DNA from: an uncultured bacterium
GTDB taxonomy: Bacteria > Cyanobacteriota > Vampirovibrionia > Gastranaerophilales > Gastranaerophilaceae
Direction: 5' to 3'
DNA: 64,000 nucleotides
Assembly: GCA_902777855.1 (NCBI GenBank)
Contig: CACYVN010000001.1
Location: 186,001 to 250,000 of the forward strand
In this document: in pieces, positions 854 through 9,604 of the stretch
How the letters are laid out: every line of letters starts with the position of its first letter
Numbering within the stretch: position 1 is the first letter of the stretch
Made by a program: the position numbers and the translations under genes
The notes under the pieces: generated by a model
What the model was told of the DNA's origin: nothing
What the model saw: only the letters and a program-made list of their open reading frames with translations
The model's database searches: none

Positions 854-1273
854 ATGACAGACAATCTAACAAAAGAACAACGTCATAAGAATATGACACA
901 TATTAGAAGTACGAATACACGGATAGAGAAAGATGTTACAAAAGCATTGTGGAATCTTGGTTATCGCTTTCGTAAGAATGTAAAAACTCTACCAGGCAAA
1001 CCTGATATTGCAATACAAAAGTATAAAATTGTTATATTTTTAGATTCTTGCTTTTGGCATAAATGTCCTGAACACTTCAAAAAACCAAAGTCTAATTTAG
1101 AGTATTGGGAGCCGAAAATAAAAAGAAATATTGAAAGAGATGCTGAAATCAACCAATATTATAAAGACAATAATTGGCATATATTAAGAATCTGGGAACA
1201 CGAAATTAAGAAAACAAATTTTCAAAATACAATTGAAAAGATTAAAAATTTTATTGAATTAAATAAACTATAA
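854..1273 (+). CDS. vsr: Very short patch repair endonuclease (Vsr)
   Basis: Vsr nicks DNA 5' of the T in T:G mismatches left when 5-methylcytosine deaminates, starting repair back to C:G. The 139 residues match the family in length and order: an N-terminal NMTHIRSTNTRIE segment, the catalytic region around GKPDIAIQKYKIVIFLDSCFWHKC with the metal-binding Asp and the Cys/His zinc ligands, then the family's FKKPKSN segment and a C-terminal WEHEIKK helix. No clear ribosome site precedes the ATG, but the N terminus aligns with the family. Its stop overlaps the stop of the convergent MazG-like gene by 6 bp. Vsr genes usually sit near a C5 cytosine methyltransferase, and one is encoded at 4022-5137. 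Confidence 0.95.
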   Translation: MTDNLTKEQRHKNMTHIRSTNTRIEKDVTKALWNLGYRFRKNVKTLPGKPDIAIQKYKIVIFLDSCFWHKCPEHFKKPKSNLEYWEPKIKRNIERDAEINQYYKDNNWHILRIWEHEIKKTNFQNTIEKIKNFIELNKL

Positions 1274-1615
1274 TTCGGTGTATTTCTTACAGGTCCCTTT
1301 GGATTTTTCTATTGGATATTTTCTTCTATTTTTACTTAATTTATCAATTACAGCATTAGATAAATCAATATTTAAAACATCCGCCATTGATAGCAGATAT
1401 ATTAAAATATCCGCCATTTCTTCCTGAAGATGCTCCCGTTTATTTATTGCTGTATCGAAAGAACTTTTGTTGTCATCCCAAAGAAATAATTCAGCTAATT
1501 CTGAGACCTCAACCGAAAGGGCCATTGCTAAATTCTTTGGTGTATGAAACTGTTTCCAATCTCTTTCATCTCTAAATTTTTTTACTTCATTTTGCAAATC
1601 GTTAATATTTTCCAT
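1268..1615 (-). CDS. MazG-like nucleotide pyrophosphohydrolase
   Basis: A 115-residue all-alpha NTP pyrophosphohydrolase of the MazG/DCTPP1 (RS21-C6-like) type, which hydrolyses (d)NTPs to monophosphates and pyrophosphate. The magnesium-binding motifs are visible: EVSELAE in the second helix (ExxE) and EEMADILIYLL in the third (ExxD). It starts two bases after the stop of the upstream restriction-nuclease-like gene (1617-2162) in the same direction, so the two are probably co-transcribed and translationally coupled. Similar enzymes occur in phages and defence islands as dNTP-pool cleaners; its role next to a nuclease here is not known. Confidence 0.85.
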   Translation of the reverse strand: MENINDLQNEVKKFRDERDWKQFHTPKNLAMALSVEVSELAELFLWDDNKSSFDTAINKREHLQEEMADILIYLLSMADVLNIDLSNAVIDKLSKNRRKYPIEKSKGTCKKYTEL

Positions 1616-1616
1616 T

Positions 1617-2162
1617 TTAATCCACCAATGATATTCTTTTTACAGGCTGTAAATGATCTGGAACAATTATACATGACTTCATTGAAAAACGTGGTCTTCT
1701 TCCTTGTTCTTGCTGCATTTTAAATGTTTCTTTTTTTGCTTGATTTAATACAAGCGAATACACATCACGGGTAATGTGATAAAAATCGACAATACCATCA
1801 ACGCTACCATTAGGTGCAAAATCCACAAACCATAGTTCATCCCAAGTTGATTTCGGCCCAAAGGAAGTACAATCATTTGGTATAGATGCAGATTTAATTT
1901 GAATTCCTGCGCCTGTACTTATGTCTACACAGTCATAGGAATGAGCCGTCCCATTTGTTCTTACTGCATTAAAGAATATACAAAAAAGAGCTTCACTAAA
2001 AACATCAGGAACATTTAATGTTCTCCCTTCCAAAGATTTTAAGTCTGTATTAATATCTTGCCACTTTTTAAATATATTTTTTAACTTTATAAAGTCCTCT
2101 TGGTCAAAAGCATCACCTATAACTTTTGTTCCGTCTTTTAGCTTAACTTCCATTTTTCTCAT
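1617..2162 (-). CDS. Type II restriction endonuclease, Bsp6I-like
   Basis: The 181-residue protein resembles the Bsp6I family of type II restriction enzymes (GC^NGC cutters): an N-terminal VKLKDGTKVIGDAF strand region, a VPDVFSEALFC helix, YDCVD, then IQIKSAS, which reads as the Asp and Q-x-K part of a PD-(D/E)XK active site, followed by CTSFGPKSTWDELWFVDF. The size fits the family. The ATG at 2162 lies 7 bases after an AAGGAG site. The MazG-like gene follows directly. The C5 methyltransferase at 4022-5137 is a plausible partner. Family recognition is from memory of conserved segments; the specificity cannot be read from sequence. Confidence 0.65.
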   Translation of the reverse strand: MRKMEVKLKDGTKVIGDAFDQEDFIKLKNIFKKWQDINTDLKSLEGRTLNVPDVFSEALFCIFFNAVRTNGTAHSYDCVDISTGAGIQIKSASIPNDCTSFGPKSTWDELWFVDFAPNGSVDGIVDFYHITRDVYSLVLNQAKKETFKMQQEQGRRPRFSMKSCIIVPDHLQPVKRISLVD

Positions 2163-2233
2163 GACATAACTCCTTGTATTTAATGGGAAAGATAATATTA
2201 GTGTATCACAATTTTTTGTGATATAAAAAATCT

Positions 2234-2977
2234 ATGGAAAAATTAAAAAAAGCAGACGAAGATAAATATTTTATTACGAAAAAAAAGGATTTTTTACCAC
2301 TTCCTGTCTTTTCTGAAGAAATCATAAGTGCTGTTTTTGATTTTGCTTACGATATGACCTACGGCAAAGAGGGTGAACATAGAGACCACAGAAGCGGGGG
2401 ACAGCATAAAAGAAGAAATGGTGAAATTTTTATAAACACATTCCAAGGAAAACTGTCTGAATTCGGTGTATATTATTACCTAAGAAAAAACAATATTGTT
2501 GATTTGGGGCGTCCAGACTTAGAAAAATGGGGACTGGGAAAGTGGGACGAAGCGGATTTTTCCTGCAATAATAAGAAAATTTCTATTAAATCAACCAAGC
2601 ACTTCGGTAACTTGATTCTTCTTGAAACAAAAGATTGGGATGAAGAAGGTAAATATAAACCAAATGACAGCTCTTACGATATAACTATTTTGGTAAGAAT
2701 TAAGCCTGACGGAGAAAATTTATTAAAGAAAAGCAGGTTATTATACACAGATACTTGCCCAAAAGAACAGTTAGAATCGATAATAAAAAGTGAAAAATGG
2801 CTGTGTGATATTCCGGGATTTTTAACAATAAAAATGCTGAAAGAAATTATAAACAATGATTTTATACTTCCGCAAAATAGCTATCTAAACGGTACAACAA
2901 GAATGGATGCAGAAAATTATTACATACAAGCAGGGGATTTAATTGATATTGCCCAAATTAAAAGTATTTTAAAATGA
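2234..2977 (+). CDS. PD-(D/E)XK restriction-endonuclease-like protein A
   Basis: A 247-residue protein with a recognisable PD-(D/E)XK core: helix residue E76 in GKLSE, D108, and the SIKSTK strand (S117, K119, K122), with E131 eleven residues further on. The usual (D/E)-x-K position is Ser here. Cfr10I/NgoMIV-type enzymes also use S-x-K with the acid moved downstream, so the active site may be permuted. It lies 10 bp upstream of a second nuclease (2988-4025) sharing the GKLxE and IKSTK signature, and the two probably form one operon. The named restriction family is not recognised. It may be one subunit of a two-subunit endonuclease. Confidence 0.65.
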   Translation: MEKLKKADEDKYFITKKKDFLPLPVFSEEIISAVFDFAYDMTYGKEGEHRDHRSGGQHKRRNGEIFINTFQGKLSEFGVYYYLRKNNIVDLGRPDLEKWGLGKWDEADFSCNNKKISIKSTKHFGNLILLETKDWDEEGKYKPNDSSYDITILVRIKPDGENLLKKSRLLYTDTCPKEQLESIIKSEKWLCDIPGFLTIKMLKEIINNDFILPQNSYLNGTTRMDAENYYIQAGDLIDIAQIKSILK

Positions 2978-2987
2978 GGAATCTATA

Positions 2988-4025
2988 ATGAGTGAAATAA
3001 TCGTATTAAATGAAAATATAGGAAAACCGAATCAGGTAGAAGATGATTTAAAAAATGTCATAGATTTTAATGATGAGAATATTTATACATTAGAACAATT
3101 TTCTCAGTTATTTTCTGGCGAATTTAGAGGTTTAATATGTTACTATAAAGAAAGAAATAAAGAAGCAAGTAAAAGAAGTGATTGGTATGAGGATGTAAAT
3201 TATAATTCAATTCCTTTTGAGCAAGTAAAAGTAGGGCGAAAAGACGGATACAAAATTACAGAAAAAGATTTATTAAATTGGTACAATGCTTCAATATTGC
3301 CTAATACGGTTTTAGTTACAGAGCAAGATTATTTATTTGCATTAAAATTTTCAATAGCCTGTTATATTAAAATGGGACAATCCCCGCATGGTTTAGCAGG
3401 AATGGATAGGGATATGAATCAAAGATTATCTAATGATGTTCTAGGCAAATTAGCTGAAATCGCGGTAATGAAGCATGCAAAGCAATATGGCTGTGAAATT
3501 GGTTTAGCATTTGATTTATGGGATTTAGAAAAACACGATTTTTCTTACTATCAATATGAAAAAGATATACGTTTAGTTAATGGACATATTCCACAAAAAA
3601 ATATTGAAATTAAATCAACTAAATATAGAAGCAGTATGCAAGATGTTCCTATGTATAAAACTCATGAAGAAGAACACCATAATTTTGATTGCTTAGTACA
3701 AGCAAAGCTTACGTTACCTAAAACGCATCTATTGAATTATCTAAATTTGAAAATACTAAAACAAGATATTTCAAACTCTATTGAATACTTGCAAGATTAT
3801 AAAAATGACGAGAATGAATATAATAAATTATTAAAAGAAACTGTTTGGAAAGATTTACCTGTATATATTAGCGGTATTATCAATAAGGATGATATGTTTA
3901 AAATTGGCGATGAAAAGAAAACAATACCCTGTTTAAACCAAAGTGTCAAAAATAAATATTTTACATTTTCTGCACTGTTGGATAATTCACAAGAAACTTT
4001 CAAAAAGTTTTACGCAAACCTCTAA
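2988..4025 (+). CDS. PD-(D/E)XK restriction-endonuclease-like protein B
   Basis: A 345-residue protein whose central part repeats the core seen in the gene before it: GKLAE with E157, D184, then EIKSTK with E207 and K209. Unlike protein A, it keeps the full D...E-x-K triad. The N-terminal ~100 residues are a separate, mostly helical segment with an Arg/Lys-rich stretch (YKERNKEASKRSDW) and could read DNA sequence. GAGGA precedes the ATG. Its stop overlaps the stop of the convergent methyltransferase by 4 bp. With protein A it looks like a two-component restriction enzyme, but no specific family is recognised. Confidence 0.65.
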   Translation: MSEIIVLNENIGKPNQVEDDLKNVIDFNDENIYTLEQFSQLFSGEFRGLICYYKERNKEASKRSDWYEDVNYNSIPFEQVKVGRKDGYKITEKDLLNWYNASILPNTVLVTEQDYLFALKFSIACYIKMGQSPHGLAGMDRDMNQRLSNDVLGKLAEIAVMKHAKQYGCEIGLAFDLWDLEKHDFSYYQYEKDIRLVNGHIPQKNIEIKSTKYRSSMQDVPMYKTHEEEHHNFDCLVQAKLTLPKTHLLNYLNLKILKQDISNSIEYLQDYKNDENEYNKLLKETVWKDLPVYISGIINKDDMFKIGDEKKTIPCLNQSVKNKYFTFSALLDNSQETFKKFYANL

Positions 4026-5137
4026 TCTAATATTTTTAAAATTTCTTCTGCTAACAATTGGATAACATCAACGGACACAGCATTTCCAGCCTGTTTGTAC
4101 AGGTGTGCGTTTGAATATGGTCTACCTTTGAACGATATTGGAAGTGTATAGCCGTGACCAACTGGGAACCCCTGGAGTCTAAAGGTTTCTGCTGGAGTTA
4201 ATTTTCTTACTCCGTCTGCAACTTTTATTAATGGTACATTGTGCCCTCCAGTTCCCATATTTGCTGTTAATGTAGGACAAACATTGCTCTGATTTTTTCT
4301 AACATACATTCCTCTGCGGCATTGATAAAATTGATATTTCTCATTAACTTCTTTTGCTAAATTAATACCATCTTCTAAAAAGTAGTGCGGATATTTTTCT
4401 TTTGTATAATAAAATTCTTTGTTATCTTGATAATTCACATTGTAGTTAATTACTTTTTCTACTTCTTTAGCTCTTTCTTTTGCTGACTTTTTAGTTTTAT
4501 AATTATCAGAATTATCAAAAAAGGTAAATTTATCAGCATCTTTTTTATTTAAAAACCCTACAATATATATTCTTTCCCTGTTTTGAGGTAATTCTGTAAA
4601 ATCCATTGTATTTAGGACTTTTTCTTTTATTGTATATCCACAATCTTCCAATTTGGATTTTATAATTTGATAAGTTCTGCCTGAATCATGCGACAATAAG
4701 TTTTTAACATTTTCCAAGAATAATATTCTCGGTTTTTGTGAATATTTATCCATTTGATTAATAAGTTCAACAATTTGTAAGAACAAATTTCCTCGTTCAT
4801 CAGCAAAGCCTCTTCTCTCCCCGGCAATACTAAAAGCTTGGCAGGGAAAGCCTCCGTTTAGAACATCAATTTTTGAATCAAAGAAATAGTGACGCTGACT
4901 TTCATAATATTCTTTTTCTTCTTCAGAAGTACATAATGATGGATTTAAGAATTTGTGTATATCTCCTTCTAACAATGGGTGATTGAAATTTTTTCGGTAC
5001 GTTTCGCAAGCATATTCATCAATTTCATTAGCAAATTTTATTTCATATTCTTTGTCTTCTAATTTAGCATTTTGAAAACCTAAACAAATTCCGCCAACAC
5101 CAGCAAATAAACTTCCAACATTATATTTCTTCTTCAT
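4022..5137 (-). CDS. DNA (cytosine-5-)-methyltransferase
   Basis: A complete C5 cytosine methyltransferase of 371 residues. It shows motif I (LFAGVGGICLGF, AdoMet binding), motif IV with the catalytic Cys99 (GGFPCQAFSIAGERRG), motif VI (ENVKN), motif VIII (QNRERIYIVGF), a target-recognition region of roughly 110 residues, motif IX (RKLTPAETFRLQGFP) and motif X (YKQAGNAV). The ATG at 5137 is preferred over the in-frame TTG at 5143 because GGAAGG sits six bases before the ATG. It is the modification enzyme of the local restriction island and shares a 79-bp divergent promoter region with the glycosylase at 5217. A GCNGC target is suggested only by the Bsp6I-like nuclease. Confidence 0.95.
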   Translation of the reverse strand: MKKKYNVGSLFAGVGGICLGFQNAKLEDKEYEIKFANEIDEYACETYRKNFNHPLLEGDIHKFLNPSLCTSEEEKEYYESQRHYFFDSKIDVLNGGFPCQAFSIAGERRGFADERGNLFLQIVELINQMDKYSQKPRILFLENVKNLLSHDSGRTYQIIKSKLEDCGYTIKEKVLNTMDFTELPQNRERIYIVGFLNKKDADKFTFFDNSDNYKTKKSAKERAKEVEKVINYNVNYQDNKEFYYTKEKYPHYFLEDGINLAKEVNEKYQFYQCRRGMYVRKNQSNVCPTLTANMGTGGHNVPLIKVADGVRKLTPAETFRLQGFPVGHGYTLPISFKGRPYSNAHLYKQAGNAVSVDVIQLLAEEILKILD

Positions 5138-5216
5138 TAGCAACCTTCCTTTATGCTTTTCATGCTAAAATAAAAGTGCTGTAAGTTCAAGAATGTAACA
5201 AAAGGAGCAACATATT

Positions 5217-5855
5217 TTGACACAATTGAGTACATACAAAGTTAAACTTATTGCGAATGATCAAATTATTGAATATCTAAAAAGCAAAGATTCTGTTTTT
5301 GAAATGTTATTTGATAAATATGGATATGCTCGCCTTGAAAGAGAATCTGATATATTTGAATCAATTGTTTCAAATATAATCGGCCAGCAGTTGTCTAATA
5401 AAGTCAAACAAGTGATCTATAATAGATTTTTAAATTTGGTAAAAACTGTAACACCTGAAAGCATTTTAAATATTGATACTGAATTAATTAGACAGTGTGG
5501 AATATCTTATTCTAAAATTAGTTATATTAAGGAATTGTCAGAGAATATTTTAAATAATAATTATAACTTTAATAATTTAGATAAACTAAATGATGATGAT
5601 TTGATAAAAGAATTATGCAAAATAAAGGGTGTTGGTAAATGGACAGCCGAAATGCTTGCTCTTTTTTCATTTGGACGTGAAAATATAATTAGCTATGATG
5701 ATGTTGCTTTACGCAATGGGATTATAAAAGCAAAGGGTTACAAAAGTCTTACAAAACAACGATTTGAGCAATTAAGAAAAAAATATAGTCCATATTGTTC
5801 ATATGCTTCATTATATTATTATGCACATAATGATGATGAATTAAGATGGAAATAA
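5217..5855 (+). CDS. HhH-GPD DNA glycosylase, AlkA-like
   Basis: A 212-residue base-excision glycosylase of the HhH-GPD superfamily, closest in style to AlkA / 3-methyladenine glycosylase II. The helix-hairpin-helix is IKGVGKWTAE (about 136-145), and the catalytic Asp lies in SYDDVAL (D161/D162). IIGQQLS near residue 54 is also typical. There is no FeS-cluster Cys motif at the C terminus, so it is not an Nth/MutY type. It starts with TTG, supported by AAAGGAG nine bases upstream. Placed head-to-head with a C5 methyltransferase and near Vsr, it could remove thymine from T:G mismatches or repair alkylated bases; the substrate is inferred only from context. Confidence 0.85.
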   Translation: MTQLSTYKVKLIANDQIIEYLKSKDSVFEMLFDKYGYARLERESDIFESIVSNIIGQQLSNKVKQVIYNRFLNLVKTVTPESILNIDTELIRQCGISYSKISYIKELSENILNNNYNFNNLDKLNDDDLIKELCKIKGVGKWTAEMLALFSFGRENIISYDDVALRNGIIKAKGYKSLTKQRFEQLRKKYSPYCSYASLYYYAHNDDELRWK

Positions 5856-8278: not shown

Positions 8279-9604
8279 ATGAAAAGTACAGATATACCTG
8301 CAGATGGAATAATTAAATTAAATAATGATACACAAATAAAAGTAAGACTTAGAGAAGATGAAAACAACAAACTAAAATTAGAGATTTTAGATAAACCAAG
8401 CAACATAAACCATTTTCACGGAGATTTAAAAGGTCACTTTGAAATAAATGGGGACAGTCTCAATATCACATTTTTAAACTGTAATAATCATCACCCACAA
8501 CAATACGAAATTGAATTTAGTCATCACATTGAATATTGGGATTTTGGGAATCCTAATAATACGCAGTATATTGATCTACGCTCAAAACGCAAAGAACTCT
8601 GTTTTAGGATAGAAAATATAAAACTCTGGCTATATCCAAGAACTAGAAATATATATGATAATTTGTGGAGCTATGTTGATAATCATGGGAATAAGGTTAA
8701 ATCAAGGCAAGATGCTGATTTTATAAAAATAAAAGTTGGAAATAAATCCAATGAATATGAGTTTACATATCAAGACAATAAATTTATATTATCAATAATT
8801 GATGAATTTCAGAGTAATTTTTTGAAGTATCCGGATGTAAATCTTTATCCGAGTTGTTATTTAAAACTTTCATCTGAAAAAGAACTTCCTGTACTATATT
8901 TATATCGTATGATTTTGAAAATACAAAAACTGTTCTCTTTATTTTTTAATCAAGTTGCTAATTTAACCTCAATATCTGAAGTAAAAAAGTTTGATTATTT
9001 TATAAAGTATGATATTTTACGGCCCAATCATAAATCCGATATCTTTGTCCCCTATTTTAATATTGACTATGAGGCTGTAAGTCAAAATTTAGGATCTATA
9101 TTACAAAAATGGTTTGAAATATATGATGAATATGAAATGGTCATAGATTCAATATGTAGTTACGAAACATCAAATGTATTATCATATGAAATTTCCAAAA
9201 AAGCACAGTTACTCGAAACTTTTGGGAATATAATTAATAAAGGAGCAAGTACCAGAAGTGATATTAAAGTTGCATTATCTCAATTAAATACAAATACTTT
9301 TAATAAGATTTTTCAACAGAGCGAAATCAAGTTTGATTTTGATATAAACGAATTGGGCAATACCTCAGAACAACAAATTTCCATTTTAAGTGAACAAATA
9401 ATGAATCTGCGTAACCATTCTATTCATCCATATAAATCAGGAAAATTAAAAACTCCTGCAGATGACAAGATAATTAAACCATTTGCAAGCGGTGATGATT
9501 TAGATATTTATGCAATTGATACACTTACACAGTGTTTATCAAAAGTCTTTATTGCCCTTATCTTACAAAAATTAGATATTGATAATTTGTATAATATTCT
9601 TTAA
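8279..9604 (+). CDS. HEPN-domain protein, ApeA-like candidate defence RNase
   Basis: A 441-residue protein with a beta-rich N-terminal half (about 1-200) and a helical C-terminal half. Near the C terminus is R378-N-H-S-I-H383, the RX4-6H motif of HEPN ribonucleases, placed between long helices as in HEPN domains. The two-part layout resembles ApeA-type proteins, single-gene anti-phage abortive-infection effectors with a HEPN nuclease at the C terminus; this protein is shorter than typical ApeA. ATG 8279 has GAAAGGA upstream. It stands alone between two structured repeats. The HEPN motif is visible; the ApeA link and defence role are inference. Confidence 0.6.
   Translation: MKSTDIPADGIIKLNNDTQIKVRLREDENNKLKLEILDKPSNINHFHGDLKGHFEINGDSLNITFLNCNNHHPQQYEIEFSHHIEYWDFGNPNNTQYIDLRSKRKELCFRIENIKLWLYPRTRNIYDNLWSYVDNHGNKVKSRQDADFIKIKVGNKSNEYEFTYQDNKFILSIIDEFQSNFLKYPDVNLYPSCYLKLSSEKELPVLYLYRMILKIQKLFSLFFNQVANLTSISEVKKFDYFIKYDILRPNHKSDIFVPYFNIDYEAVSQNLGSILQKWFEIYDEYEMVIDSICSYETSNVLSYEISKKAQLLETFGNIINKGASTRSDIKVALSQLNTNTFNKIFQQSEIKFDFDINELGNTSEQQISILSEQIMNLRNHSIHPYKSGKLKTPADDKIIKPFASGDDLDIYAIDTLTQCLSKVFIALILQKLDIDNLYNIL

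What the first reader, a model, noticed from the sequence alone, without database searches (positions are those of the whole stretch)
2234..4025. Tandem PD-(D/E)XK pair, one with a permuted active site
Two adjacent proteins of different size share GKL-x-E and IKSTK. B keeps D...E-I-K. A has S-I-K with a downstream Glu, reminiscent of Cfr10I/NgoMIV active sites. With one methyltransferase and a third nuclease nearby, this could be an unrecognised two-subunit restriction enzyme or a modification-dependent one.
Basis: partly seen in the sequence, partly recalled or inferred. Interest (0 to 1): 0.65.

Follow-up and report, generated by a model that had tools for sequence, protein, structure and literature searches.

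The report
Unlisted restriction enzyme family, GCNGC systems
The two neighbouring genes are real and distantly related DNA-cutting enzymes, but they are two separate restriction enzymes (one from a widespread family absent from the family libraries searched) gathered with a third one around a single protective methyltransferase that probably marks GCNGC, not two halves of one enzyme.

Summary
A (2234-2977) and B (2988-4025) are adjacent, share GKLxE and IKSTK, and their profiles match (hhalign 95%, E 3e-8). A has no acid in the (D/E)xK slot in any of 48 homologues, but E76, D108, K119 and E131 are invariant. AlphaFold gives a confident A model (pLDDT 94) with weak PD-(D/E)XK resemblance.
The interpretation mostly fails. 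A lies with B only in the window and two close relatives (3 of 51 A loci). B-type proteins occur elsewhere without A, next to other C5 methyltransferases. Genomes argue against modification-dependence: 45 of 51 A carriers have a C5 methyltransferase with one near-identical target-recognition segment, 36 on the same fetched stretch and 9 elsewhere in the genome (background 4 of 200 Flavobacteriaceae). That segment also accompanies Bsp6I-family (GCNGC) and Cac824I-type (GCNGC) endonucleases.
Best reading: A is a Type II endonuclease family missing from Pfam, NCBIfam and PADLOC, cutting GCNGC-class sites. The window stacks three endonucleases (Bsp6I-type, A, B) on one methyltransferase. No enzyme activity is shown.

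The parts
2234..2977 (+). A: 247-aa PD-(D/E)XK-type restriction endonuclease of an unlisted family (E76, D108, K119, E131 invariant)
2988..4025 (+). B: 345-aa Type II REase, PADLOC REase_II PDLC03411; distant relative of A
1617..2162 (-). R: Bsp6I-family Type II REase (GCNGC prototype), divergent from A
4022..5143 (-). M: C5-cytosine DNA methyltransferase with 'class-1' target-recognition segment (YQCRRGMYVRKNQSNVCPTLTANMGTGGHNVPLI); tail-to-tail with B
854..1273 (+). Vsr: very-short-patch repair endonuclease, usual companion of C5 methyltransferases
1268..1615 (-). MazG-like nucleotide pyrophosphohydrolase, kept beside R in L010 and L011
5217..5855 (+). HhH-GPD (AlkA-like) DNA glycosylase, divergent from M; role in the system uncertain
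2204..2223 (.). Palindrome TATCACAATTTTTTGTGATA in the divergent R/A intergenic region; possible operator
   Evidence: identical in L011, absent in L010

Best explanation
A is the restriction endonuclease of a Type II restriction-modification system. It recognises a GCNGC-class site, cuts unmethylated DNA with a PD-(D/E)XK active site whose metal ligands are probably E76, D108 and E131 with K119 as the catalytic lysine, and is blocked by the C5 methyltransferase M. B is a second, distantly related Type II endonuclease, normally the partner of a different C5 methyltransferase, and R (Bsp6I family) is a third. In this genome and two relatives all three sit around one M, which must protect the sites of all three. 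Shown: homology, residue conservation, a confident A model, gene linkage, genome-wide co-occurrence with one methyltransferase recognition segment. Inferred: cleavage, the site GCNGC or a subset of it, the role of E131, and that each enzyme acts alone.
For: 51 A loci from the window's phylum, Bacteroidota, Bacillota, Campylobacterota and others. A C5 MTase lies within 3 kb in 39 of the 50 non-window loci. The MTase's recognition segment is nearly the same in 36 of 51 loci (31 by strict motif; 5 more with one inserted residue). Loci lacking a nearby class-1 M have one elsewhere in the genome: L020, L021, L023, L036, L040, L044, L056, L032, L053. Background is 4 of 200 other Flavobacteriaceae for the segment; A was in 1 of those 200, beside its M. 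A and M distance matrices correlate (Mantel r 0.64, p 2e-4; 0.28, p 0.002 without Flavobacteria). In about 20 loci A is the only REase candidate recognised beside M. Site: the same segment accompanies Bsp6I-family REases, incl. two-gene plasmid systems in Lactococcus and Streptococcus, and the 'NgoFVII-family' neighbours, whose conserved peptides at residues ~22 and ~84 match those encoded by the CAC1502 primers; CAC1502 is Cac824I, shown by knockout to be a GCNGC enzyme (PMC2817722). Fold: pLDDT 94.2; PDB matches weak but led by Hjc, EcoRV, BglI, ThaI, SwaI.
Against: No enzyme activity, methylome or solved relative. PDB fold matches have E > 0.5. GCNGC is only slightly under-represented in the host (O/E 0.87 against 0.95-1.01 in three relatives). 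Three loci (L014-L016) pair A with an MTase of another recognition class, and L027, L051, L011 show no C5 MTase (L011 and L051 are cut by the contig end or partial). Some loci carry A beside other REases, and two fuse A to helicases, which leaves room for an accessory role.
Confidence: 0.72

Rival explanations
1. A and B are two obligate subunits of one heteromeric restriction enzyme, as in BbvCI or BslI.
For: Adjacent, same strand, 10 bp apart, distant homologues; the arrangement is kept in L010 and, as far as its contig reaches, L011.
Against: 48 of 51 A loci lack B. B-type genes sit beside C5 MTases without A in G094, G228, G466 and Thermus plasmids, and with R but no A in G548.
Confidence: 0.06
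2. A or the pair is a modification-dependent enzyme (like BisI, which cuts methylated GCNGC).
For: BisI uses the same GCNGC context, lies next to a C5 MTase gene (inactive) and has an E...D...QxK active site (PMC4926085, PMC11347163).
Against: A carriers nearly always keep an apparently intact C5 MTase with one recognition segment; an enzyme cutting that mark would kill them. A lacks the Gln of BisI's QxK (S/N/A/G instead), and solved BisI-family structures are not among the matches listed for A's model.
Confidence: 0.04
3. A is not the restriction enzyme but an accessory nuclease of GCNGC systems, for repair at methylated sites (like Vsr) or for processing broken DNA with a helicase.
For: A often accompanies another REase of the same system, and is fused to UvrD and DEAD/RecQ-like plus UvrD helicase domains in two Lachnospiraceae.
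Against: In about 20 loci A is the only REase candidate recognised beside M, and Vsr or glycosylases are often also present.
Confidence: 0.13

Closest known systems
Bsp6I / LlaDII (Type IIP, GCNGC; PF09504)
   Same: Same presumed site and same MTase recognition segment; a member (R) sits in the window
   Different: A has no detectable Pfam match to this family; Bsp6I-type R has E...D...QIK, A has E...D...(S/N)xK plus E131
Cac824I / 'NgoFVII-family' REases with C-terminal B3-like domain
   Same: Same MTase class; co-occurs with A in about 10 loci
   Different: About 390 aa with a B3 DNA-binding domain (PF20731, shown for L018); A matches no such domain
BisI family (Type IIM, methylated GCNGC)
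   Same: PD-(D/E)XK, GCNGC context, helix Glu, no acid in the (D/E)xK slot
   Different: BisI needs 5mC and has QxK; A goes with an apparently intact protective MTase
Cfr10I / NgoMIV active-site variant (PD...SxK...E)
   Same: S-x-K with a downstream invariant Glu
   Different: A also has an invariant helix Glu (E76); its downstream Glu is at the end of the next strand; no sequence or top structural match
PADLOC REase_II PDLC03411
   Same: B matches (E 8e-9), all aligned B homologues match
   Different: B in the window has E in the ExK slot where most relatives have S/G/T; no A member matches this model

Membership tests
PD-(D/E)XK nuclease superfamily (A) | Alpha-beta core with D and (D/E)xK-type residues at fixed places | tested here: inconclusive
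   Confident model with helix 62-85 (E76), strands 109-111 (D108 beside it), 114-122 (K119), 127-131 (E131); top PDB matches are mostly PD-(D/E)XK enzymes but none significant; phage proteins, two named restriction endonuclease, match at E below 1e-3
PD-(D/E)XK nuclease superfamily (A) | Acidic residue two before the catalytic Lys | tested here: not met
   Position 117 never D/E in 48 homologues; E131 invariant instead
Type II restriction endonuclease with cognate MTase (A) | Genetic linkage to a DNA methyltransferase of consistent specificity class | tested here: met
   36 of 51 on the same stretch, 9 in trans
Type II restriction endonuclease with cognate MTase (A) | Site-specific cleavage blocked by the MTase | not testable with these tools
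   needs enzyme assay
Heteromeric two-subunit REase (A+B) | Both subunit genes co-occur | tested here: not met
BisI-type modification-dependent REase (A) | E...D...QxK active site, no active cognate MTase | tested here: not met
Cfr10I/NgoMIV-type active site (A) | Downstream Glu occupies the metal site in three dimensions | not testable with these tools
   model coordinates not available; only conservation shown
PADLOC REase_II PDLC03411 (B) | Profile match over most of the model | tested here: met
   68-327 against 27-279 of 350, E 8e-9; all 7 B homologues match
Bsp6I REase (R) | PF09504 above gathering cut-off | tested here: met
   55.6 bits against cut-off 25

The most novel reading that the evidence does not exclude
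A single GCNGC methyltransferase type serves as the shared shield for several interchangeable, independently acquired endonucleases (Bsp6I, Cac824I/B3, A and B types), and lineages stack two or three of them; A is an unlisted family with a relocated active-site Glu that has also been built into nuclease-helicase fusions.
Probability: 0.4. Interest if true: 0.55.

Novelty: new member of a known kind. Interest (0 to 1): 0.42.

Why it matters
It would add a widespread restriction enzyme family absent from Pfam, NCBIfam and PADLOC, with a predicted target that makes it testable at once. It also shows that one methyltransferase specificity recruits several endonuclease families, sometimes together, which bears on why cells keep redundant restriction enzymes. 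Whether REBASE already holds an A member (Fsp4HI from Flavobacterium sp. 4H, GCNGC, is a candidate) could not be checked.

Tried and rejected
Site avoidance: a first script had a cache error and was redone; the signal is weak. SPbeta region fetched for a known GCNGC recognition domain did not contain the methylase and was not pursued. Thermus plasmid gene after B's MTase looked like a possible A but reads as a MutY/Nth-like glycosylase by inspection. BisI membership considered and rejected for A.

Full report
OBSERVATION. Both ORFs exist at the stated coordinates: A 2234-2977 and B 2988-4025, same strand, 10 bp apart. Around them are Vsr (854-1273), a MazG-like gene, a Bsp6I-family endonuclease R (1617-2162, minus strand, PF09504, 55.6 bits against a cut-off of 25), a C5 methyltransferase M (4022-5143, minus strand) and an HhH-GPD glycosylase (5217-5855). 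A matches nothing in Pfam, NCBIfam, PADLOC or PDB sequences; no A homologue matches PADLOC, and in Pfam only a zinc ribbon in two members. B matches PADLOC REase_II PDLC03411 at 8e-9. A and B are remote homologues: BLASTP E 0.064, but profile-profile probability 95.1 and E 3.4e-8.

ACTIVE SITE. In 48 A homologues E76, D108, K119 and E131 never vary, and position 117, where the acid of (D/E)xK should be, is S/N/A/G/I/C. The A model (39 sequences) has pLDDT 94.2 and pTM 0.91 and puts E76 in a long helix, K119 in a strand and E131 at the end of the next strand. Against the PDB there is no significant match, but most of the best-ranked ones are PD-(D/E)XK enzymes (Hjc, EcoRV, BglI, ThaI, SwaI). 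Against viral models, 28 matches pass E 1e-3, mostly unnamed phage proteins of 150-200 aa, two of them named restriction endonuclease. B's E207 is not typical of its family, where S, G or T is usual.

PAIR OR NOT. A scan of one genome per species gave 49 A loci; with the Priestia plasmid and the window there are 51. B lies next to A only in the window, L010 and L011, whose A proteins are 78-80% identical to the window's. B-type genes are found next to C5 methyltransferases without A in G094, Thermus plasmids, two genomes of the window's own phylum, and with R and M in one Flavobacteriaceae genome (G548). The two-subunit idea is therefore unlikely.

PARTNER METHYLTRANSFERASE. The A-linked methyltransferases share one target-recognition segment, YQ[FW]RRxYVRENKSNVCPTLTANMGTGGHNVPLI or close to it (strict count 31 loci, plus five loci with one extra residue, among them the window). 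Seven loci without a nearby methyltransferase (L020, L021, L023, L036, L040, L044, L056) all carry one with this segment elsewhere in the genome, as do L032 and L053, whose nearby one is of another type. L014-L016 have a second recognition class, the one also seen beside B in other genomes; L011 and L051 are cut off and L027 shows none. In 200 other Flavobacteriaceae the segment occurs in 4 and A in 1, next to its methyltransferase; of the other three, two have a Cac824I-type and one a Bsp6I-type endonuclease beside it. A and M divergence correlate (Mantel r 0.64, p 2e-4). This pattern is what a toxic endonuclease and its antidote should show, and it argues against cutting of methylated DNA.

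SITE. Two lines give GCNGC. Bsp6I-family endonucleases, whose prototype recognises GCNGC (own knowledge), form two-gene plasmid systems with the same class of methyltransferase. The 'NgoFVII-family' proteins beside A carry, at residues ~22 and ~84, peptides close to those encoded by the published primers of CAC1502 (GSLSGLFK, QKVAEFNK), the gene whose disruption removes the GCNGC enzyme Cac824I (PMC2817722). The related CglI and BceSIV systems read GCCGC and GCWGC (PMC4267653, PMC5737866). Whether A reads GCNGC or a subset is unknown. Host avoidance of GCNGC is weak (O/E 0.87 against 0.95, 1.01 and 0.97).

MECHANISM. Most likely A cuts unmethylated GCNGC-class sites in incoming DNA by metal-dependent hydrolysis, and M protects the host. 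B and R do likewise, so the window has three endonucleases behind one shield. Why stack them is open: different sub-specificities, back-up against phage inhibitors, or decay in progress are all possible. Two Lachnospiraceae proteins fuse A to UvrD, or to DEAD/RecQ-like and UvrD, helicase domains, so some A relatives may cut in an ATP-dependent way.

LIMITS. No activity data; REBASE not available, so A might already be known there (Fsp4HI from Flavobacterium sp. 4H cuts GCNGC, PMC4926085); B could not be modelled; the genome scan saw only relatives matching short patterns, so counts are a sample.

Noticed in passing
L049:7956-11120 and L054:7950-13508: A fused to a UvrD helicase (1054 aa) and to DEAD/RecQ-like plus UvrD helicase domains (1852 aa), beside Vsr, a Cac824I-type endonuclease and a C5 methyltransferase in Lachnospiraceae.
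   Followed up: partly
window 2204-2223: Palindrome TATCACAATTTTTTGTGATA in the divergent R/A intergenic region, identical in L011 but absent in L010; may be an operator.
   Followed up: partly
L081-L092 (relatives G009, G036): GCGC is absent from 120 kb of G009 (93 expected) and nearly so in G036 (7 against 63), but normal in G000 and G023; GGCC is strongly depleted in all four.
   Followed up: no
L026:3965-5712: Two tandem A copies (258 and 314 aa) in one Clostridia locus.
   Followed up: no
L007:6227-6940 and L008:4258-4965: Thermus plasmids have a MutY/Nth-like glycosylase (by inspection) right after B and its C5 methyltransferase, in line with repair of deaminated 5mC; the window has an HhH-GPD glycosylase beside M.
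   Followed up: no
window 8279-9604: 441-aa protein with a weak, below cut-off match to the ApeA N-terminal domain (PF18862), a defence-related family.
   Followed up: no
L025:452-14306: Large island with what look like a MORC-type ATPase, Z1 and McrBC-like genes (read by eye) around A, a Cac824I-type endonuclease and a C5 methyltransferase.
   Followed up: no
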